A stretch of DNA of 64,000 nt from Crateriforma conspicua (GTDB lineage: Bacteria > Planctomycetota > Planctomycetia > Pirellulales > Pirellulaceae), in NCBI RefSeq assembly GCF_007752935.1, contig NZ_CP036319.1, positions 4,464,001 to 4,528,000 on the forward strand, written 5' to 3'. Positions 1 to 9,220 of this stretch are shown here, in pieces. How positions within the stretch are numbered: the stretch's first letter is position 1; each line of letters opens with the position of its first letter. The position numbers and the translations under genes were made by a program. A model generated the notes under the pieces. That model saw nothing but the letters and a program-made list of their open reading frames with translations, did not search any database and was not told where the DNA came from.

Positions 1-3000
1 CAACATAGCCATTCAGTCAAGGTTCCCGATGGGATCACCCCCGGTTCGTATTACCTGCTTGCCAGCCAGTCGGCGGACTTTGCCAAGTCGGACAACCAGC
101 TGAGCATCGCCGAGGTCTGGGTCAGCGATCTGGCGTTGGTCATTCGAAACGACAATCGCACCGGTCGCTTGTCAGGTTTCGTGCTGAACGCAAAATCCGG
201 TGAACCGATCCGTGGTGCCAGCGTGCGATCTTGGATGCGTGAACCGCGGACCAATCGTTTTCGCCCGCTTCGTACCGTTCGCAGCGATGCAAACGGGTTG
301 TTCCAAATCAACGCCGCCGATCGCAACAGCGTGATGCTGCTGGCCAGCCACGACGGAAATCGTCTGAGTTCACACAACTACTTCAACACCCGACGCGTTG
401 AACCGAATCACCGAACCAACGAATCCACTCAGTTTTTTACAGACCGCAGCCTGTATCGCCCCGGTCAAACGATCCGCTTCAAAGGCATCTGTTTGTCGGT
501 GTATCAACACCAAGACCAATACAAGGTCCTGAAGAATCGGTCGCTTAGCGTGACGTTGTCGGATCCGAACGGGAAAGAAGTCGAAACGCTGAAGGTTCGC
601 ACCAACGATTACGGCAGCTTTTCCGGCAGCTTCACCGCCCCTCGGGACCGGCTGACCGGACGTATGACGTTGAAAGTCGTCGATGGTCCTCGCGGTCAAG
701 CCAACATCAACGTCGAAGAATACAAACGTCCGAAATTTCAGGTCGAACTGGAACCGCTGGCCGACCAAGCGTCTTTGAATCAAGTCGTCACGGCGACGGG
801 CAAAGCAACGGCTTACACCGGAGCGGCGATCAACGATGCCAAAGTCACTTGGCGTGTCGTGCGATCGGTCAACTATCCGGTCTGGTGGTACTGGCGTTGC
901 TGGTGGATGCCGCCGCAAAGCAGCAGCCAAGAAATCGCCCATGGCACCAGCATGACCGACGGGTCCGGTCGATTTGAAATCGAATTTACGGCGAAACCGG
1001 ATGCCAGCGTTGCCAAGGATTCCGAGCCGACGTTCCGCTATGAGATTCACGCGGACGTCACCGACACGACCGGCGAAACACGATCCGACAAGCGGACGAT
1101 CAGCCTAGGTTACACCAGCCTGGCCGCATCAATGACGGCCGACGATTGGTTGACCGCGGACGAACCGGTATCGATCCGAATCCGCACAACTTCGCTGGAC
1201 GGACAACCCCAAGCGGCAACCGGAACCGTCAAGATTCACCGCTTGGTTCAGCCCGACCAGGTGACTCGTCAATCATTGACGCGTGCTCCTGATCCCTTCA
1301 GCCCGCCGGCGTTGTTCGACGAAGGTGAAACGAAATCGCCCGACGAAATCGATCCCACCAATCCAAACTCCTGGCCGCTGGGCGATGTCGTCGCGGAAAC
1401 CGAATTCGAAACCAACGCCAGCGGCCAGACCACGTTCAAAGCATCGCTGGATGCGGGCATCTATCGTGCGGTGCTGACCAGTCGGGACGATCGCGGAAAT
1501 GAGATCTCGGCGTTGCATCCGATGCAAGTGCTGGACTTGGACGCCAAGCAACTGGACATTCGGCTGCCCGAGATCTATCAAGCCAAATCGTGGTCGGTCG
1601 AAGTCGGCGAGGACTTTCAAGTCTTCTGGGGCAGCGGATATGAACAGGCGCGAGCATTCGTCGAAATCGAACATCGCGGTAAGGTGCTGAAATCTTTCTG
1701 GACGCCCGCCGATCGAACCCAAGCATTGATCGAACAGAAAGTCGAACCCGGAATGCGTGGCGGGTTCACGATCCGCACCACGATGGTTCGCGAAAACCGT
1801 GCTTTCCTGCACAGCAACACGGTTTCGGTTCCCTGGTCGAACAAGAATTTGTCGATCCGATGGGAACACTTCGTCAGCAAGCTTTCACCGGCGGAAAAAC
1901 AAACGTGGACCGCCATCATCGAAGGCCCTGACGCCGAACGAGCGGCCGCCGAAATGGTGGCGACGCTATATGACGTATCGCTAGACGCGTACCAACCGCA
2001 TCAGTGGTTGCAACGCTTCAGCGTCTTTCGCCGTGACGGATCATCGGTGCGATCCTATTTCCAAAACCACAACCAGAACTTGCAAGTTTTCTGGAACGAC
2101 TGGACCACCCGCAATCGCGACGGCAGCTTGGTGTACCCCAGCCTGGCCGGTGAATTGGTCCACAACTTCATGGGCTATCAATTCATGCGTGGCCGCATGA
2201 TGCGAGGCGGCATGGGTGGGGCCATGGGACGTTCGAACATGTTTTTTGGTGCCGCGCCCCAGGCCGCACCGATGGCAGCCAGCCCGGAAATGGCCGACGC
2301 ATTTGGAATGGACGATGCAGAGGTCGCCGAGGGAGCGATCATGTCCAAAGCGTCCGCGGGAATGGGGGGAATTGGCGGAGGCGGTGAGGCGGAACAAGCC
2401 CCACAGCCCGACATCGATCTGTCGGGTGTTCAAGCCCGCAAGAATTTGAACGAAACCGCGTTTTTCTTCCCACACTTGACCGCCAGTGACGACGGCACGG
2501 TGCGGATGGAATTCACGATGCCCGAAGCCCTGACCGAATGGAAATTCATGGGCTTCGCCCACGATACGGAATTGGCCAGCGGCGGTCTGATCGACAGCGT
2601 GGTGACCAGCAAGGATTTGATGATCCAGCCGAATCCGCCGCGTTTCTTACGCGAAGGCGACCAGATCGAATTCACCGTCAAGGTCAGCAACCTGTCGCCG
2701 TCACGGCAAACCGGCACTGTTCGACTGACGTTTGCAAACGCTCGCACCGGAGATACCGTCGATGCGTTGCTTGGAAACGATTCGGTCGATCAAACCTTTG
2801 AAGTCGCCGCCGGTGAATCCAAGTCTTATTCTTGGCGATTGAATGTTCCCGACGAAATCGGATTCCTGACCTACAAGGCGGTCGGCTCGACCGGGCGTCT
2901 TTCCGATGGCGAAGAAGGCTATCTGCCCGTCCTGTCGCGTCGCATTCTGGTCACCGAATCGTTGGCGTTGCCGATCCGTGGTGCACAAACCAAGGACTTT

Positions 3001-4731
3001 CGTTTCGACAAATTGGCCGATTCGGCGGGGTCGGAATCGCTGCGGCACCAGTCGCTGACCGTGCAAATGGTTTCCAACCCGTCGTGGTACGCCGTGATGG
3101 CACTTCCATACCTGATGGAGTTCCCGCACGAGTGCAGCGAACAATTGTTCAACCGAATTTATGCCAACGCGCTGGCGCGAAAGATCGTCAACAGCGATCC
3201 GAAGATCGAACGCATCTTTGAACAGTGGCGGGGCACCGAAACGCTGGACAGCCCACTGTTGAAAAACGAAGACTTGAAAGCGGTCATGATCGAAGAAACG
3301 CCCTGGTACCGCCAAGCCCAGGCCGAAAGCCAAGCTCGGCGAAACGTCGCGGTGCTTTTTGATACCAACCGTTTGAACGATGAACTTGATCGTGCGGTGG
3401 AAAAGCTTGCCGATCGTCAACTGGACGACGGCACCTGGTCGTGGTTCCCCGGTGGACGCCAAAACCGCTACATCACCCTGTACATCGTCACCGGCTTCGG
3501 CCGCCTGGATCATCTGGGTGTGAACATCGAAACCGACGTGGTCGACCTTGCGATCCCGGAACTGGATACCTGGATGACGGAGATCTACGAAGACATCAAA
3601 GCCAAGGACCGAGACAAGAATCACCTGTCATCCACGGTGGCGTTGTATTTGTACGGCCGCAGCTTTTTCTTGAAAGATCATCCGATCGCTGCGGAGCATC
3701 GCCAAGCCATCGACTACTGGGTCGATCAAGCATCCACGCACTGGTTGAAACTGGCCAACCGACAATCGCAGGCACACCTGGCGATCGCCCTGAAACGGTT
3801 CGGCAAAACGTCTTCCGCACGCGCTATCATGGTGTCGATCAAAGAACGCAGCGTCACCGACGAAGAAATGGGCATGTTCTGGCGTGACACCGAACTGTCA
3901 TGGTGGTGGTACCGTGCCCCGATCGAAACCCAGGCGATGATGATCGAAGCCTTCGACGAAGTCATGGACGACCAAGTTGCGGTCGAAGACTGCAAGGTCT
4001 GGTTGTTGAAGCAAAAACAAACCCAAGATTGGAAAACAACCAAGGCCACTGCCGACGCCGTGTACGCGTTGCTGTTGCGTGGTGGAAACGAATTGGCATC
4101 CGACGAAATCGTCACCGTCGCGCTGGGAGGTGAAGAGATTCAGCCCGAGCGGATCGAAGCGGGCACCGGTTTCTACGAACAACGATTCACCGGGTCAGAA
4201 ATTTCCGCCAAGCAAGCGGACGTTCGTGTCACGAAGGTCGACGACGGCGTCGCTTGGGGCAGCGTGCACTGGCAATACATGGAAGACATCGCCAACGTGA
4301 CCGCTCATGAAGGCACGCCGCTGAAACTGTCGAAACAGTTGTACGTCAAAAAGAATACGGCGTCGGGCCCCAAGTTGCAGCGTGTCGATGGCCCGGTGGA
4401 AGTCGGCGATGAATTGGTGGTGCGTCTCGTTTTGGCGACCGATCGCGACATGGAATACTTGCACCTGAAGGACCACCGCGGCAGCGGTACAGAACCTGTC
4501 AACGTGCTGTCGTCGTATCGCTATCAAGACGGATTGGCGTACTACGAATCCACTCGTGATACCGCCAGCCACTTCTTCATCGACTACCTGCCCAAAGGCA
4601 AGTACGTGTTCGAATACTCGACCCGCGTCCAACTGCGTGGTGAATATCAGACGGGTCTTGCGAACATCCAATGCATGTACGCACCGGAGTTCAACAGCCA
4701 CAGCGAAAGCCTGCCGATCCAGGTCCAGTGA
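1..4731 (+). CDS. Alpha-2-macroglobulin-like (MG-domain) protein, 5' end outside window
   Basis: The frame is open from base 1, so the true start lies upstream and about 1576 codons are visible. Family features are seen in order: repeated beta-sandwich MG segments, including the typical FFTDRSLYRPGQTI stretch near codon 140; a Gly/Met-rich linker at about 2166-2400; an A2M-type stretch beginning ETAFFFPHL and containing MEFTMPEALTEWKF; then an alpha-helical thioester domain with the motif CSEQ. The Cys codon is at 3133 and the Gln codon at 3142, so the C-x-E-Q thioester pair is kept although the usual Gly or Leu is Ser. Bacterial members are large envelope or secreted proteins thought to trap proteases by a thioester-linked conformational change. 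No PBP1C gene is visible next door. The product stands alone before a 216-bp gap. Family is sure; substrate and function are inferred. Confidence 0.85.
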   Translation, partial: QHSHSVKVPDGITPGSYYLLASQSADFAKSDNQLSIAEVWVSDLALVIRNDNRTGRLSGFVLNAKSGEPIRGASVRSWMREPRTNRFRPLRTVRSDANGLFQINAADRNSVMLLASHDGNRLSSHNYFNTRRVEPNHRTNESTQFFTDRSLYRPGQTIRFKGICLSVYQHQDQYKVLKNRSLSVTLSDPNGKEVETLKVRTNDYGSFSGSFTAPRDRLTGRMTLKVVDGPRGQANINVEEYKRPKFQVELEPLADQASLNQVVTATGKATAYTGAAINDAKVTWRVVRSVNYPVWWYWRCWWMPPQSSSQEIAHGTSMTDGSGRFEIEFTAKPDASVAKDSEPTFRYEIHADVTDTTGETRSDKRTISLGYTSLAASMTADDWLTADEPVSIRIRTTSLDGQPQAATGTVKIHRLVQPDQVTRQSLTRAPDPFSPPALFDEGETKSPDEIDPTNPNSWPLGDVVAETEFETNASGQTTFKASLDAGIYRAVLTSRDDRGNEISALHPMQVLDLDAKQLDIRLPEIYQAKSWSVEVGEDFQVFWGSGYEQARAFVEIEHRGKVLKSFWTPADRTQALIEQKVEPGMRGGFTIRTTMVRENRAFLHSNTVSVPWSNKNLSIRWEHFVSKLSPAEKQTWTAIIEGPDAERAAAEMVATLYDVSLDAYQPHQWLQRFSVFRRDGSSVRSYFQNHNQNLQVFWNDWTTRNRDGSLVYPSLAGELVHNFMGYQFMRGRMMRGGMGGAMGRSNMFFGAAPQAAPMAASPEMADAFGMDDAEVAEGAIMSKASAGMGGIGGGGEAEQAPQPDIDLSGVQARKNLNETAFFFPHLTASDDGTVRMEFTMPEALTEWKFMGFAHDTELASGGLIDSVVTSKDLMIQPNPPRFLREGDQIEFTVKVSNLSPSRQTGTVRLTFANARTGDTVDALLGNDSVDQTFEVAAGESKSYSWRLNVPDEIGFLTYKAVGSTGRLSDGEEGYLPVLSRRILVTESLALPIRGAQTKDFRFDKLADSAGSESLRHQSLTVQMVSNPSWYAVMALPYLMEFPHECSEQLFNRIYANALARKIVNSDPKIERIFEQWRGTETLDSPLLKNEDLKAVMIEETPWYRQAQAESQARRNVAVLFDTNRLNDELDRAVEKLADRQLDDGTWSWFPGGRQNRYITLYIVTGFGRLDHLGVNIETDVVDLAIPELDTWMTEIYEDIKAKDRDKNHLSSTVALYLYGRSFFLKDHPIAAEHRQAIDYWVDQASTHWLKLANRQSQAHLAIALKRFGKTSSARAIMVSIKERSVTDEEMGMFWRDTELSWWWYRAPIETQAMMIEAFDEVMDDQVAVEDCKVWLLKQKQTQDWKTTKATADAVYALLLRGGNELASDEIVTVALGGEEIQPERIEAGTGFYEQRFTGSEISAKQADVRVTKVDDGVAWGSVHWQYMEDIANVTAHEGTPLKLSKQLYVKKNTASGPKLQRVDGPVEVGDELVVRLVLATDRDMEYLHLKDHRGSGTEPVNVLSSYRYQDGLAYYESTRDTASHFFIDYLPKGKYVFEYSTRVQLRGEYQTGLANIQCMYAPEFNSHSESLPIQVQ
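2166..2400 (+). other. Met/Gly-rich linker inside the macroglobulin-like gene
   Basis: This segment encodes about 78 residues dominated by Met, Gly, Ala and Arg (for example GRMMRGGMGGAMGRSNM), with about 12 Met in 60 residues. It lies just before the conserved A2M-type domain, the position where animal macroglobulins carry the protease-sensitive bait region. Whether it acts as bait here is inference. Confidence 0.55.
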
Positions 4732-4785
4732 GCATTCACTGTTCGATTGGCGGGCATCGTGCGGTATGCGCTGGAGTCGCGAACA

Positions 4786-4863
4786 CGGCCGGTCGCTAAA
4801 CCGAACGCCAATCCAGACCCTCGTTCAATTCATTCAAATTGCGAGGGCCGTCGGGGGTGACGA
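4786..4863. repeat. Left copy of 78-bp direct repeat (displaced 3' end of M24 peptidase gene)
   Basis: This copy matches 7989-8066 in the same orientation with 7 mismatches in 78 bp, and 32 bp are identical (4818-4849 against 8021-8052). On the minus strand it would encode VTPDGPRNLNELNEGLDWRSV and a stop at 4796-4798, that is, the last residues of the M24 peptidase at 7999-9132. The five differences inside the reading frame are all third-codon-position changes, one of them giving Glu to Asp. The identical core is an imperfect dyad with arms CCCTCG/CGAGGG and CAATT/AATTG. Homology to the peptidase stops at about 4863. It is probably the resident gene end displaced by an insertion. Confidence 0.85.
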
Positions 4864-5190
4864 AACAAACGGACTCAAAATCCTATCCCCACCAGTTTCC
4901 ATGCAGCTATCGATGCCGCGCTATGGTCTCGGCAAACATGACTAACCGTGCCGCTCGTGCCTGAATCCTTCCCCACTGTCTCCCTTCTTTCGCGGCGAAC
5001 ACTTTTCATTCTTTTTGGCATTTTGCTGAAACATTTTGTTGCCCCCCCATTTTTTTCCGTTAAAACAGTTTTTGGTCAGGGTCAATTGGGCAACAAGCAA
5101 GTAAACAGTTGGGGCCAACGGCACGTGTTGTCGAAGCGATGTTTGAATTGGCGCGGTGCTCTGTCAGCCACCGCCACACGGCTCAATACG

Positions 5191-6348
5191 ATGTCGTTGA
5201 ACGAGCGGATCAAATTGGTCTCGCAAATGGGTCACCTGAGCAGATTCTGCGTTTCAGCTTTCTGGACGCGATGTTGTGTGGTTTTGCTGTGCATCCCATT
5301 TTCGGCATCCTCCCTTGCTAATCAGGTCAACACCGACAGTTCGGAAGGAGACGTCGTTAAAGGGCCCAGCAAACGTGTGGTGCAGATTGAGCGAGCCTGC
5401 GTCTTGACGAGAGTTGAGCGCAGGTTGCCGCGAGTCGAAGTGGATTTCGGTTCACACCTTCCCGGAACGGTTATCGATTGCTTGCTGACAGTGAAGAATC
5501 ACACCAATTCTGACTTGGTGTTCAGCTCTATCCAGCCCGGATGCCAATGCCTTTCGCTATCTCCACGCTCGGGTGTGCTGCCTGATAAATCTAATCAGGT
5601 TTTTCGAATCAGAATTTCAACGCCGACCAATCCTTCCAAAGTTCGTTCGGAAGTCGGAATCTTGGCCCGGCGTGCCAACGGTTCACCACTTTTTTCGATA
5701 CGACCATTCTTCTCGGCCAGTGGCGTTGTTGCCTTTGTCCCAAGCTATGTGGATACCGAAATCCCAGTGGACCAGGATAATCATGAGATCCAAATTCCAT
5801 TTTTGCTGGGGGCCGATACAAAGCAAGAACTTATTGACTTAACGGCAAGCCAATCTCTCGCGAATATCGAGACCGCGTTAGACTTTGAAAACTCAGTAGT
5901 TCGCATGCGAGTTAAGCGGAAAGCCATCAAGAATGGCCCCATCGCCGGATCGCTCAAGCTGACCAATATTGAAACCGGATCGTCAAGCGACGTCATGATT
6001 GACATCTCGACATCGCATCCGTTGACCGTTGCACCGCGGACGCTTGTCATGCACCTCGACGCGGAACAAGGCCGATATACGGGCAAGATCGTAGCGTCCG
6101 ACCGTCGGCCAGATGGTGACGGATCCAAGCTGAAATGTGATTTCTATGCTACTTCCAAACCATTGGCTTCTGAACGAGTGCGTCAAGTTGGCCAGGTTGG
6201 CATCTATCGAATCTTCTTCGATGCTCCTGATCCGGCGTCAGAACCGCCGGAAAACCTTGTGATCGAATGCCGGTTGATGGCTGGCAAGTTACTACGAACG
6301 GTCAAGATCCCAGTCGTTTTTTCTTCAAGATCTCCCAACCAGGAATGA
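5191..6348 (+). CDS. Secreted DUF1573-like protein (islet gene 1)
   Basis: The product is about 385 residues. The frame is open back to 4948, but the part before 5191 has no protein-like character and no secretion signal. ATG 5191 (MSLNERI) or ATG 5227 (MGHLSRF) both place a hydrophobic segment (CCVVLLCIPFSASSLA) as a signal peptide, and 5227 is an equally good start. After it comes a DUF1573/ASH-like beta-sandwich of the pattern VDFGSHLPGTVIDCLLTVKNHTNSDLVF followed by a Cys-x-Cys (PGCQCLSL). That family is common in planctomycete and Bacteroidetes exported proteins, but its role is not settled. The remaining 240 residues look like further beta-rich repeats. Codon usage is visibly more A/T-rich than the flanking genes. 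It is followed 3 bp later by the Cys-rich gene, so the two are surely cotranscribed. Confidence 0.7.
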   Translation: MSLNERIKLVSQMGHLSRFCVSAFWTRCCVVLLCIPFSASSLANQVNTDSSEGDVVKGPSKRVVQIERACVLTRVERRLPRVEVDFGSHLPGTVIDCLLTVKNHTNSDLVFSSIQPGCQCLSLSPRSGVLPDKSNQVFRIRISTPTNPSKVRSEVGILARRANGSPLFSIRPFFSASGVVAFVPSYVDTEIPVDQDNHEIQIPFLLGADTKQELIDLTASQSLANIETALDFENSVVRMRVKRKAIKNGPIAGSLKLTNIETGSSSDVMIDISTSHPLTVAPRTLVMHLDAEQGRYTGKIVASDRRPDGDGSKLKCDFYATSKPLASERVRQVGQVGIYRIFFDAPDPASEPPENLVIECRLMAGKLLRTVKIPVVFSSRSPNQE

Positions 6349-6351
6349 CAA

Positions 6352-6825
6352 ATGAAGCGAATCGCCAAGCTCCTTATTGCTATTGGACTCTTTATCGCTG
6401 CCTGCGTGGCAAACCTCTTGAGCACCAATTCCGCCCAAGCAATCTGCACAGTGGAAATCACCAACAATTGCATAGACATCGTTGAAGATGCCTCCGCATG
6501 CGCGGACACTGACTGCGAACCAGGCTACTACAGTCCCTTTTATTACTGCCCGGAAGACACTGTCGAACACGAAGTCAATGATCGCGACTTTACCACCACC
6601 GAAGAACGAGACTACGACGGTGGTCCCGAAATCAATTGGGGCGATGACTACGCCCCGGTTCCAGGTACGACAACTTGGTGCGATCGTTGGTGGGATTGCG
6701 ATTACAGTTCGCGATGCACTGCGGCAACAAACTACAAATGTCAAGTCGATTTTGGATCGGGTGCCCACTTCCTTAGTCAAGTTCAAGATCATACTGTGAT
6801 CGGACGCTGCCCCGACGACCAGTGA
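6352..6825 (+). CDS. Small secreted cysteine-rich protein (islet gene 2)
   Basis: This 157-residue product starts with a clean signal peptide (MKRIAKLLIAIGLF, cleavage expected after SAQA). The mature part is acidic, with about 11 Cys plus many Tyr, Trp and Asp residues, including CADTDCEPGYYSPFYYC and CDRWWDCDYSSRC. Paired Cys suggest disulfide-stabilised folding outside the cytoplasm. No known family is recognised. It begins 3 bp after the DUF1573-like gene and precedes the third islet gene by 80 bp, which implies one transcript. It could be a secreted effector, a surface peptide or a partner of the DUF1573 protein; none of these is shown by the sequence. Confidence 0.65.
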   Translation: MKRIAKLLIAIGLFIAACVANLLSTNSAQAICTVEITNNCIDIVEDASACADTDCEPGYYSPFYYCPEDTVEHEVNDRDFTTTEERDYDGGPEINWGDDYAPVPGTTTWCDRWWDCDYSSRCTAATNYKCQVDFGSGAHFLSQVQDHTVIGRCPDDQ

Positions 6826-6905
6826 CGTCCCTGAAAACCGTACCTCGCCGCACCGGTCTTCTATGCAATTCGATACGCATAGGTACTTTTCCTGAGGAAC
6901 GATCA

Positions 6906-7877
6906 ATGTTTATTATAGTTAGGGCATCTCGCGTCTTTTTATATGGATCCGCTTTTGGATTGTTGCTCTTCGCATGCCCGATGGTCCGGTCGGCAGATAA
7001 TAGGGCCAACGAGTTGATTGGATACATGGATGCGTCGACAGCGTTGCTCGACGCGATTGACTCGTACGACCTGGCTTGGCGAACCGAAGAATCGGTTGAG
7101 GTGATGGGCATGCCGATCATACCGCGAGAGAGTTTCTTGCGACTACACTATGATAAGCCGAATCGCCAACTGCTCCTTCTTTCGGTCAACTACAGCTACG
7201 ATATCGAGCAACTACTTAGAGGTGTCCCTGCTGATCGTCGTGCGGAAACCTTAATGGTTTTAATTGACGGTGATCGCACTATTCGGCGTTTGGTGGGACG
7301 TCCGCCTGAAGTTCTCCCACTTTCATTCGAACAAAGATCCGAATTACGAACCATTCCCAGACTTCGTTCACTGGGGTCATTGGGGTTCTTCGCATCTGTC
7401 TTTGGCCAGGAAAACAACCGCGAAAGCTTGGTGCGGGTTACGTCGATGGCCAAAACGCTCAGTACAAAAGTGACGGATCTTGAAATCAGCTTTACCGCAA
7501 AGATCGAAAGCAAATGTGACGAAACCTATCAATGGTTTTTCTCATCTCAAGAATTGCTCCCCATCCGACACGTGGTGCGTCAAAGATGTGGCGCCAATCA
7601 AAATTGGGATGTTGTTACCCGCCAAACAATCGACTGGAGCAAACATGATGGGGCTGGCCATCTTCCTTCCAGTGTCGTGGAAGAAACGCTCGGATCGATC
7701 AGGCTACCGCGCAAAGACGGTACGAAGAAACGCTTTCCGATGGAGAAAACGTTGGTGGTCGACATGCTTTGGCGACCACTCGGTTCGATCGGCGACATTG
7801 AACAGATTGCTCAGCGTGAACAGATCACACCTAAAAGCATTGAACAACTGATTGATTGGAAACGACCAGAGGGCTGA
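6906..7877 (+). CDS. Secreted protein of unknown function (islet gene 3)
   Basis: ATG 6906 is chosen because GAGGA lies about 8 bases upstream and it places a signal peptide (MFIIVRASRVFLYGSAFGLLLFACP, cleavage near RSA) at the N-terminus. An in-frame GTG at 6822 overlaps the stop of the previous gene but would bury the signal. The 323-residue product has a loose resemblance to LolA-like or outer-membrane-lipoprotein-sorting-style beta proteins (alternating short strands, SYDLAWRTEESVEV), but I do not recognise a family. A/T-rich codons are shared with the two preceding genes. It ends 111 bp before the right direct repeat, so it is the last cargo gene of the islet. Confidence 0.6.
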   Translation: MFIIVRASRVFLYGSAFGLLLFACPMVRSADNRANELIGYMDASTALLDAIDSYDLAWRTEESVEVMGMPIIPRESFLRLHYDKPNRQLLLLSVNYSYDIEQLLRGVPADRRAETLMVLIDGDRTIRRLVGRPPEVLPLSFEQRSELRTIPRLRSLGSLGFFASVFGQENNRESLVRVTSMAKTLSTKVTDLEISFTAKIESKCDETYQWFFSSQELLPIRHVVRQRCGANQNWDVVTRQTIDWSKHDGAGHLPSSVVEETLGSIRLPRKDGTKKRFPMEKTLVVDMLWRPLGSIGDIEQIAQREQITPKSIEQLIDWKRPEG

Positions 7878-7988
7878 TTCGCGAAGCGTCTTTGTGATCA
7901 ACGGCGTTGACACTGGAAGTGACCGAATACGCTTTTTTTCTTCGCCTGAATAGGCTCTCTGGTCCGATCAAGCCGATTTCCAGTCGAA

Positions 7989-8066
7989 CGGCCGACCGCT
8001 AAACCGATCGCCAATCCAGGCCCTCGTTCAATTCATTCAAATTGCGAGGGCCTTCTGGCGTGACGA
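7989..8066. repeat. Right copy of 78-bp direct repeat, inside the intact peptidase gene
   Basis: This is the partner of 4786-4863. It comprises the last 22 codons and stop (7999-8001) of the M24 peptidase gene plus 10 bp beyond. The distance between repeats is 3125 bp. The arrangement resembles an attR site in which the inserted DNA restored the 3' end of its target gene, but no recombinase gene is seen in between. Confidence 0.85.
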
Positions 8067-9132
8067 CGACCATGTCTTCGACGCGGATGCCACCGCAACG
8101 GCGACCGTATAGACCAGGTTCGACGGTGAAGACTTCACCAGCCAACATCTCACCACCGCCGGCATCCAGCAAAATCGGTTCGTGAACGTCCAAACCGATG
8201 CCGTGTCCGGTGCCGTGCTGGATCGACGGTTCATCGGTGATCGTCCCGCGGCTGGACGGATAGCCCTTTTGCAACAACACCGCTTCGCTGGCATGATGCG
8301 CCTGGTCGGCGGTGACGCCCGGCAATAGCTTGGCGATGCACGCCGATTTGGCTTCCAAAACCGCCGCGTGCATTTCCTTGACCACCGGATCGATGTCGCC
8401 GTGGACGACCGTCCGCGTGCAGTCGCCCCAGTAACGGGTCGCCTCACAACGCGGAAACAAATCCACGACGATCGGCGTTCCGGTCCGCAGTGGTCCGGTG
8501 CCACTGTGGTGACAGTCGGCCACTTGAGGCGCGGTCGCCACGATTGCGCCATGGGGCATCGTGTATTGCAATTTCAAAAATTCCACCGCGGCCAGACTGC
8601 GGACTCGTTCACTGGTCAGGACGGTGCCATCGAGCAACAGTTGGCCTTCGGCGTCGACGGTGGCGTCGGCAATCGTTTCGCACACCATTCGCATCACCGA
8701 TTCGGTGGTCGCCTGGGCCTGCGACAAGTACTCGATCTCTTGATCCGTTTTCGATCGTCGGTCGTTGACGCCAAGGTCGGGGTCGTAGTCGACCGTGACG
8801 CCGGCGGCAGTTAGGTGATGCGCAAAGATCAGCGGCAACGTTCGATCAGCGGACAAATGACCGACGCCGCGATCGCGCACCATGTTGGCCACCGCTGCGG
8901 CGGTCGCCGATTCGCGATCGGCGGGCAAGCCATCGGGGCCGGCATGATCGGCTGGGCAAGATACTTGCAAACCGGGTCGGTTCTGTCGCACGCGATCCAT
9001 CTCCAGATCACGCACAATTCCGAACGCCTGGTCGCCTAGCTGCAAAAACGCGGCCGGGTCGCCCAAGGGGACTCCCAAGCGTCGGTAAAGCGTCGCGTTC
9101 TTGTCGGCAAACCCGGCGATGATGAAATCCAT
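7999..9132 (-). CDS. M24-family metallopeptidase (Xaa-Pro aminopeptidase/dipeptidase-like)
   Basis: The product has 377 residues when started at ATG 9132 (MDFIIAGFADKNATLYRRL); the frame is open 20 codons further but that part is not family-like. The creatinase/aminopeptidase pita-bread fold is recognised from the five metal ligands in order: Asp in VVDLFPR, Asp in GDCTRTV, His in HGTGHGIGLDVHE, Glu in FTVEPGLY and Glu in IRVEDMV. It presumably cleaves Xaa-Pro bonds of peptides in the cytosol using two divalent metal ions. Pro specificity is inferred from family, not from residues. The 3' end is the target of the direct repeat that bounds the islet, and the last 22 residues may come from the inserted DNA. 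It is convergent with the islet genes and followed on the other side by a GntP permease on the same strand. Confidence 0.85.
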   Translation of the reverse strand: MDFIIAGFADKNATLYRRLGVPLGDPAAFLQLGDQAFGIVRDLEMDRVRQNRPGLQVSCPADHAGPDGLPADRESATAAAVANMVRDRGVGHLSADRTLPLIFAHHLTAAGVTVDYDPDLGVNDRRSKTDQEIEYLSQAQATTESVMRMVCETIADATVDAEGQLLLDGTVLTSERVRSLAAVEFLKLQYTMPHGAIVATAPQVADCHHSGTGPLRTGTPIVVDLFPRCEATRYWGDCTRTVVHGDIDPVVKEMHAAVLEAKSACIAKLLPGVTADQAHHASEAVLLQKGYPSSRGTITDEPSIQHGTGHGIGLDVHEPILLDAGGGEMLAGEVFTVEPGLYGRRCGGIRVEDMVVVTPEGPRNLNELNEGLDWRSV

Positions 9133-9220
9133 GGACGTCGATCCAAACGATGATGGGGAAACGAAAGCGGTCAGCGGGCAACATGCCGGCACAGACAGCG
9201 GTCACATTCGAGGTGCCGAA

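What the first reader, a model, noticed from the sequence alone, without database searches (positions are those of the whole stretch)
4786..8066. Three-gene islet bounded by direct repeats of the neighbouring peptidase gene's 3' end
Seen directly: 78-bp direct repeats (7 mismatches) flank 3125 bp that hold only three plus-strand genes with more A/T-rich codons than their surroundings. Each repeat is the 3' terminus of an M24 peptidase gene and only the right one is attached to a full gene. Known: tyrosine-recombinase elements often integrate at a gene's 3' end and restore it. Inferred: the islet was acquired horizontally at this site. No integrase, phage or plasmid gene is visible, so either the recombinase was lost, acts in trans, or the transfer came by homologous recombination of flanks.
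Basis: partly seen in the sequence, partly recalled or inferred. Interest (0 to 1): 0.82.

Follow-up and report, generated by a model that had tools for sequence, protein, structure and literature searches.

The report
Imported three-gene islet beside peptidase gene
A small unit of three genes, one of a patchily spread family in these planctomycete-like bacteria, seems to have entered this site by recombination in the end of a neighbouring gene, leaving a spare copy of that gene's end behind, and has recently passed between two species.

Summary
In detail: 79-bp direct repeats (7 mismatches) of an M24 peptidase 3' end bracket 3,124 bp with three plus-strand genes. The islet is an import, though not on integrase evidence: against the only held congener it has 8 mismatches in 3.28 kb, where five equal spans nearby have 182-241, so it was recently exchanged with its flanks. 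The genes are one copy of a family I found undescribed (DUF1573-like; often a small Cys-rich protein; unknown protein), present in at least 38 of 241 family genomes at many sites; low G+C is a family trait. Direct repeats flank 15 of 51 such loci against 2 of 193 control spans. In five other loci, in four other genera, the repeat is again the 3' part of a neighbouring gene, a different gene each time. At one of these, two sister species show the empty site, and the intact gene looks like a native/donor hybrid while the remnant looks native. Best reading: insertion anchored by homology in the host gene's 3' end with an illegitimate far junction, not site-specific integration. The empty state of the window's own site was not seen. 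Cargo function is unknown.

The parts
4785..4863 (-). left direct repeat: 3' remnant of an M24 peptidase gene (last 21 codons, stop, 11 bp beyond)
   Evidence: 72 of 79 identical to the right copy; all 5 coding mismatches at third codon positions (4 synonymous, 1 Asp/Glu)
4864..7987 (.). islet, 3,124 bp; in the span 4786-8066 only 8 mismatches to the sister species
5191..6348 (+). gene 1: exported-looking DUF1573/Ig-like protein (an in-frame GTG start at 4948 is also possible)
   Evidence: PF07610, 21.0 bits, below the curated 26.1; all 8 rows of the family alignment match PF07610 at E <= 0.01
6352..6825 (+). gene 2: small Cys-rich exported-looking protein, 157 aa, 11 Cys
   Evidence: no Pfam or NCBIfam match up to E 1
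6906..7877 (+). gene 3: exported-looking protein of an unnamed family (an in-frame GTG start at 6822 is also possible)
   Evidence: no Pfam, NCBIfam, PHROGs or PADLOC match up to E 1, best PDB E 0.57; 61 matching stretches in 38 of 241 family genomes
7988..8066 (-). right direct repeat: 3' end of the intact M24 gene
7999..9135 (-). intact M24 peptidase gene; 7988-8229 has 1 mismatch to the sister species, 8230-8776 has 22, 8777-9135 none
136..4731 (+). alpha-2-macroglobulin family gene (frame begins left of the window), left neighbour; 98-99% identical to the sister species per kilobase

Best explanation
The islet is one copy of a dispersed operon family (gene 1 DUF1573-like, often a small Cys-rich gene 2, gene 3 of unknown family). 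It entered by recombination without an integrase. Donor DNA carrying the unit next to the 3' end of an orthologous M24 gene paired with the resident M24 gene; a homologous crossover inside that gene gave a working hybrid whose 3' end is the donor's and is followed by the unit; the far end of the unit was joined illegitimately to the resident locus near its own M24 3' end, which stays behind as the 79-bp remnant beside the A2M gene. Later the islet with its flanks was exchanged between two species of the genus by ordinary homologous recombination. Shown: remnant anatomy and third-position differences in the window, recent inter-species sharing, recurrence of gene-end repeats at other genes, and at one sister locus an empty site and a hybrid gene. 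Inferred: that the window's M24 gene is itself a donor/native hybrid and which allele is resident, the illegitimate far junction, the route of DNA entry, and that the cargo acts outside the cytoplasm.
For: Mismatches to congener G001 fall from 182-241 per 3,280 bp (5 spans, one only partly aligned) to 8 in the islet, with mosaic edges in A2M and M24. The window's repeat mismatches are 5 of 5 at third codon positions, so both copies evolved as coding DNA: two alleles rather than a decayed duplicate; L026 7 of 10 and L204 10 of 11 agree. Gene-end repeats elsewhere: L026 (DUF4272, 259 bp), L134 (sulfotransferase, 195), L187 (PQQ_2, 71), L204 (PALP, 796), L138 (helicase-like, in pieces of 113 and 41), each one full gene and one 3' remnant. 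In the window and four of these five, the full gene is convergent with gene 3 and the remnant lies beyond gene 1. Flanking repeats: 15 of 51 loci, 2 of 112 in-locus control spans, 0 of 81 gene-centred spans, Fisher p 4e-9 without the window; 8e-8 if two gene-3-only loci are also left out. L204: G188 and G144 have one PALP gene and no unit. All 15 differences between G200's two copies lie in the last 248 of 796 bp, 10 of 11 coding ones at third positions; both empty-site species agree with the remnant at 11, with the full gene at 0, and split at 4.
Against: No congener without the islet is held, so the empty state of this very site was not seen. Third-position bias is absent in L134 (6, 3, 5) and L187 (4, 3, 3); with all five counted it is 30 of 50. 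L134 does not fit the simple picture: its complete unit lies on the same strand as the sulfotransferase gene, only a second, gene-3-only piece is convergent, and the remnant has lost its stop codon. L148 doubles a whole gene with much non-coding divergence. 36 of 51 loci show no flanking repeat within 1.5 kb, the copy between ruvC and ruvA among them, and several of the 15 repeats are dispersed or local intergenic repeats. G144 and G188 might have lost the unit by recombination between repeats. A single crossover with a circle followed by gene conversion would look alike. The hybrid gene was resolved at one locus only.
Confidence: 0.6

Rival explanations
1. Site-specific integration: a recombinase acting in trans, or since lost, inserted the islet at an attachment site in the M24 3' end; the repeats are attL and attR and the hairpin in the repeat is the core.
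For: Gene 3' end as target, gene kept, direct repeats; a hairpin lies in the perfectly matching middle of the repeat (z -4.9 for 50 nt of the right copy; the 96-nt folds give -3.2 right and -0.4 left); the genome has 26 PF00589 matches elsewhere.
Against: None of those lies within 400 kb. Six different target genes and repeats of 71-796 bp for one cargo family. In L204 the 548 bp of the remnant upstream of the differences equal the native gene, where reciprocal integration would leave element sequence. No shared junction motif seen by eye in 6 cases. The hairpin sequence is not seen by eye in the 28 printed M24 3' ends of other genera.
Confidence: 0.15
2. Single-crossover (Campbell) insertion of a circular DNA that carried the unit and part of the host gene, followed in places by gene conversion between the repeats.
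For: Same anatomy; in E. coli conjugation such events left lacZ duplications of 109-950 bp (PMC3240628, passages), close to the range seen here.
Against: In L204 the remnant's upstream 548 bp should be donor-like but are identical to the native copy, so a conversion step must be added.
Confidence: 0.16
3. Old local duplication: the host gene or the gene-unit segment was duplicated in tandem and decayed, with the unit long resident; no import.
For: L187 keeps scraps of three neighbouring genes on the far side, L148 doubles a whole gene, and L134 and L187 repeats look decayed.
Against: Third-position differences in the window, hybrid gene and empty sites at L204, and an islet far less diverged between species than its surroundings.
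Confidence: 0.06
4. The islet is ancestral to the genus and its low divergence reflects constraint, not transfer.
For: Both held congeners carry it at the same site.
Against: Few mismatches of any kind inside (2, 0 and 3 in genes 1, 2 and 3), and the low-divergence tract runs into flanking genes in a mosaic.
Confidence: 0.03

Closest known systems
Homology-facilitated illegitimate recombination (Acinetobacter, Streptococcus, Pseudomonas stutzeri; E. coli in PMC3240628)
   Same: one homologous anchor and one illegitimate junction, no recombinase; the E. coli study also met duplications of 109-950 bp of the anchor in 14 sequenced clones, which it ascribes to single crossovers
   Different: there rare laboratory events with marker DNA; here a natural pattern that recurs with one cargo family at 3' ends of different genes
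Vibrio cholerae T6SS effector-immunity module displacement (PMC5361080)
   Same: horizontally moved module anchored by homology at one side, old material left beyond the insert; the authors propose a mechanism of this kind
   Different: there the module replaces its own kind at a fixed locus; here it is added beside unrelated genes that stay intact
Small variable segments of bacterial genomes (PMC2884548)
   Same: short variable segments; 10-18% have flanking direct repeats
   Different: their repeats are mostly under 30 bp; here several are 71-822 bp and are gene ends or a whole gene
Integrative elements that insert at gene 3' ends (recalled)
   Same: direct repeat of a gene 3' end, gene kept
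   Different: no integrase found, varied targets, repeats of varied length, hybrid host gene at one locus

Membership tests
Integrase-borne genomic island / ICE / IME | integrase gene in or beside the element | tested here: not met
   three genes, none with a recombinase match; nearest PF00589 match over 400 kb away; serine recombinases not searched
Integrase-borne genomic island / ICE / IME | one target site and a repeat of fixed length for one element family | tested here: not met
   six host genes; 71-796 bp
Integrase-borne genomic island / ICE / IME | direct repeat of the target gene's 3' end, gene kept intact | tested here: met
Insertion by homology-facilitated illegitimate recombination | homologous crossover with donor DNA at one end | tested here: inconclusive
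   hybrid PALP gene at L204; in the window only a mosaic boundary in M24 near 8230 between the two species
Insertion by homology-facilitated illegitimate recombination | other end joined without homology | tested here: inconclusive
   junctions share no motif by eye, but the donor sequence beyond the join is unknown
Insertion by homology-facilitated illegitimate recombination | empty site in a close relative | tested here: inconclusive
   met at L204 in G144 and G188; no islet-free congener held for the window
DUF1573 (PF07610), gene 1 | score over the curated cut-off | tested here: not met
   21.0 against 26.1 bits for the window protein; all 8 alignment rows match at E <= 0.01, best 9e-8
Transposon with target-site duplication | short identical target duplication and a transposase | tested here: not met
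   79 bp with 7 mismatches; no transposase match among the three genes

The most novel reading that the evidence does not exclude
The operon family is a recombinase-free mobile cassette: it travels with the captured 3' end of whatever gene it lies beside, uses that end as a homology arm to re-enter the orthologous gene in other species without breaking it, and so carries a fast-changing Cys-rich exported protein through the family.
Probability: 0.25. Interest if true: 0.8.

Novelty: new variant of a known kind. Interest (0 to 1): 0.6.

Why it matters
Small genomic islets without integrases are common and their entry route is usually guessed. Here one cargo family recurs beside different genes with the same kind of scar, a gene end left over on the far side, with an empty site and a hybrid gene at one locus, so the route can be read from sequence. 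It also brings to light an operon family of exported-looking proteins, patchily spread in a little-studied group, for which I found no description.

Tried and rejected
Low G+C as evidence of import: rejected, a family trait (47 of 49 units). Dispersed repeat family: rejected for the 79-bp repeat, two copies in the genome. M24 or A2M neighbourhood of other genera as empty site: within the 1.5 kb held on each side, A2M lies next to M24 in none of the 28 M24 and 28 A2M loci returned (of 118 and 137 genomes with matches), so it says nothing; in G063 the two genes lie about 5 kb apart in another orientation. GntP is next to M24 in 10 of 28. One weak unit-like hit near M24 in L042 (E 0.002) was not followed. 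Named relatives: a genome-contig scan with M24 found none; one with the L026 host gene found one, Roseimaritima sediminicola at 62%, no unit within 8 kb. Plasmid scan with gene 3 and phage scan with gene 1: no match. Structure of gene 3 from one sequence: mean pLDDT 36, unusable. Gene-1 tree (50 rows, quick method): genera mixed, but long branches and many open forks, so only a hint. Literature: DUF1573 searches returned no paper; the listings (none; 8 of 45 shown) hold no title on this operon family; one search tested a guess about the genus and settled nothing.
Full report
OBSERVATION. The repeat is real and isolated: 4785-4863 and 7988-8066, 72 of 79 bases equal. It scores 58 in a flank-to-flank test in which 30 Markov simulations of the same flanks reach 17 and 60 other spans of the window reach 15. 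The right copy ends the intact M24 gene; the left has the last 21 codons and the stop only. The five coding mismatches are all at third codon positions: four synonymous, one Asp/Glu. The left copy was therefore probably still part of a working gene while it diverged: another allele, not a drifting duplicate.

THE ISLET IS SHARED RECENTLY. The one held congener, G001, has the same islet and repeats at the same place. Along 84 kb the two genomes are 85-97% identical per kilobase in most kilobases outside the tract, but 99.6-99.8% across 4-8 kb of the window. In 3,281 bp of islet there are 8 mismatches; five spans of 3,280 bp nearby have 182, 241, 231, 205 and 197, one of them only partly aligned. 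The tract has mosaic edges: A2M 98-99%; further left 94.4, 98.9 and 96.4% per kilobase; M24 with 1 mismatch up to 8229, 22 from 8230 to 8776, none to about 9340, then background. Islet and flanks thus moved together between the species by homologous recombination. A caveat: G001's two contigs break inside gene 2 with a 12-bp overlap.

CARGO. The three proteins begin like exported proteins (by eye, window copies). Gene 1 is DUF1573/Ig-like, below Pfam's cut-off alone but matched by all 8 rows of its alignment. Genes 2 and 3 have no match up to E 1 in NCBIfam, Pfam, PHROGs or PADLOC; the gene-3 profile has none of note in the PDB. The unit recurs: gene 3 in 30 of 199 genomes with a first profile and in 38 of 241 with a better one, 61 matching stretches, one gene split by an insertion counting twice. 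Only the 8 or 10 best candidates per genome were scored, so these are lower bounds. In 49 of 59 loci examined genes 1 and 3 form a same-strand neighbouring pair; in 26 of the 49 a small frame with at least 6 Cys lies between them, by a simple rule that may include chance frames; in L151, L197 and L199 genes 1 and 3 are one frame. Units have lower G+C than their flanks in 47 of 49, so composition is no sign of import. This genome has further copies near 2.86, 3.89 and 6.65 Mb. The one at 6.65 Mb lies between ruvC and ruvA, which are 9-259 bp apart in 21 of the 28 other loci returned (of 74 genomes with a ruvC match); in the other 7 ruvA was not found within 1.5 kb. There gene 2 is present in this species and its stretch has no match in G001, within DNA that is 94-96% identical.

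REPEATS AROUND OTHER UNITS. With one blastn threshold and 1.5-kb flanks, 15 of 51 loci have a direct repeat across the unit, against 2 of 112 spans elsewhere in the same loci and 0 of 81 spans around M24, A2M and ruvC; Fisher p 1e-9, 4e-9 without the window. Of 59 loci, 4 were dropped as incomplete (L137, L190, L196, L210) and 4 had under 500 bp of flank. L029 and L141, with gene 3 only, were kept and both count as positive; without them it is 13 of 49, p 2e-8, and 8e-8 without the window too. The weakest positive is 21 bp (L192). The test followed an earlier look at 28 loci, 9 positive, against 1 of 81 and 1 of 41 controls, so it is not fully independent, and loci of one genus are not independent either. 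Several repeats are dispersed or local intergenic repeats (L029, L132, L135, L141). But in L134, L138, L187, L204 and, with 4-kb flanks, L026, the repeat is the 3' part of a neighbouring gene, long on one side and a remnant on the other: a sulfotransferase, a helicase-like protein, a PQQ_2 protein, a PALP enzyme and a DUF4272 protein. With the window that is six host genes in five genera. In five of the six the full gene is convergent with gene 3 and the remnant lies beyond gene 1. L134 is different: it holds a complete unit on the strand of the sulfotransferase gene and a second, gene-3-only piece that is convergent with it. L148 doubles a whole small gene instead. The two control hits were not classified in this way.

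MECHANISM FROM L204. Unit in G200; 13 genomes of its genus were searched, and six besides G200 were taken for a closer look. G188 has one PALP gene and unbroken flanks; G144 likewise with about 100 bp unaligned just behind the gene; G206 has a truncated gene and no unit; G180 has 5.2 kb of other DNA; G194 and G155 match the right flank only. The six others gave only weaker partial matches. G200's two copies differ at 15 of 796 positions, all in the last 248 bp; 10 of 11 coding differences are third-position. Both empty-site species agree with the remnant at 11 of 15, with the full gene at none; 4 are split. So the full gene appears native up to about 8676 and foreign from there into the unit, and the remnant native throughout. 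Site-specific integration, or a plain single crossover with a circle, would put foreign sequence into the upstream part of the remnant; at 15 differences in 248 bp about 33 would be expected in those 548 bp (my arithmetic) and none is seen.

CODON POSITIONS OF ALL GENE-END REPEATS (first/second/third): window 0/0/5, L026 2/1/7, L204 1/0/10 (together 22 of 26 third, binomial p 1e-7), but L187 4/3/3 and L134 6/3/5, so 30 of 50 over five loci; L148, a whole gene, 40/28/82. L138, in pieces, was not counted. L134's remnant has lost its stop codon. L134 and L187, which has scraps of three genes beyond the unit, look like older, eroded cases; the allele reading rests on the window, L026 and above all L204.

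For the window this gives: donor DNA with the unit beside an M24 3' end, crossover in the resident M24 gene upstream of the repeat, far end joined near the resident M24 end beside A2M. Which allele is resident here is inferred from L204, not shown.

COMPARISON. This resembles homology-facilitated illegitimate recombination. Of PMC3240628 I saw the start of the abstract in a listing and passages: conjugation gave mostly lacZ duplications, 109-950 bp in 14 sequenced clones, which the authors ascribe to single crossovers rather than to that mechanism. Of PMC5361080 I saw passages: such a mechanism is proposed for T6SS modules. Of PMC2884548 I saw passages: direct repeats at 10-18% of small variable segments, mostly under 30 bp. 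The use of 3' ends of several different genes by one cargo family is what I did not find described in the searches named under Tried and rejected; those searches were few and cover only an open-access library.

FUNCTION OF THE CARGO. Inference only, perhaps 30% likely: a secreted, disulfide-rich, fast-changing protein with two envelope helpers, in surface or inter-bacterial interaction. No call tests this.

Noticed in passing
L022:7380-8640 (G000:C1 near 6650400-6651600): Gene 3 of the unit between ruvC and ruvA is interrupted by an IS3-like insertion (two transposase-like frames; family by recall); G001 has gene 3 whole but lacks gene 2.
   Followed up: partly
window 8013-8062: The repeat holds a strong hairpin (z -4.9 for 50 nt of the right copy), present in both copies, not seen by eye in the printed M24 ends of other genera; perhaps a terminator for convergent genes.
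   Followed up: partly
L187:12271-13826: Beyond the unit lie scraps of three neighbouring genes from the other side, one fused to another's 3' end, as if a larger duplication had eroded.
   Followed up: partly
L243 (reverse complement) 3404-8012: Where G200 has the unit, G180 has a transposase-like frame (by recall) and a 1,121-aa frame, and no PALP gene matched: other cargo at the same site.
   Followed up: partly
L151, L197, L199: Genes 1 and 3 are fused into one reading frame of 609-714 aa.
   Followed up: no
flanks of L134, L142, L148, L132, L133: Short palindromic intergenic repeats of the kind I recall as REP-like lie on both sides of several units.
   Followed up: partly
G001 contigs C5 and C10 (starts of L007 and L008): The draft assembly breaks exactly inside gene 2 of the islet, with a 12-bp overlap, for no visible reason.
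   Followed up: no
L155, L157, L158, L164, L165, L172, L178: ruvA was not found within 1.5 kb of ruvC in these seven genomes; no unit gene was found there, and what lies between was not examined.
   Followed up: no
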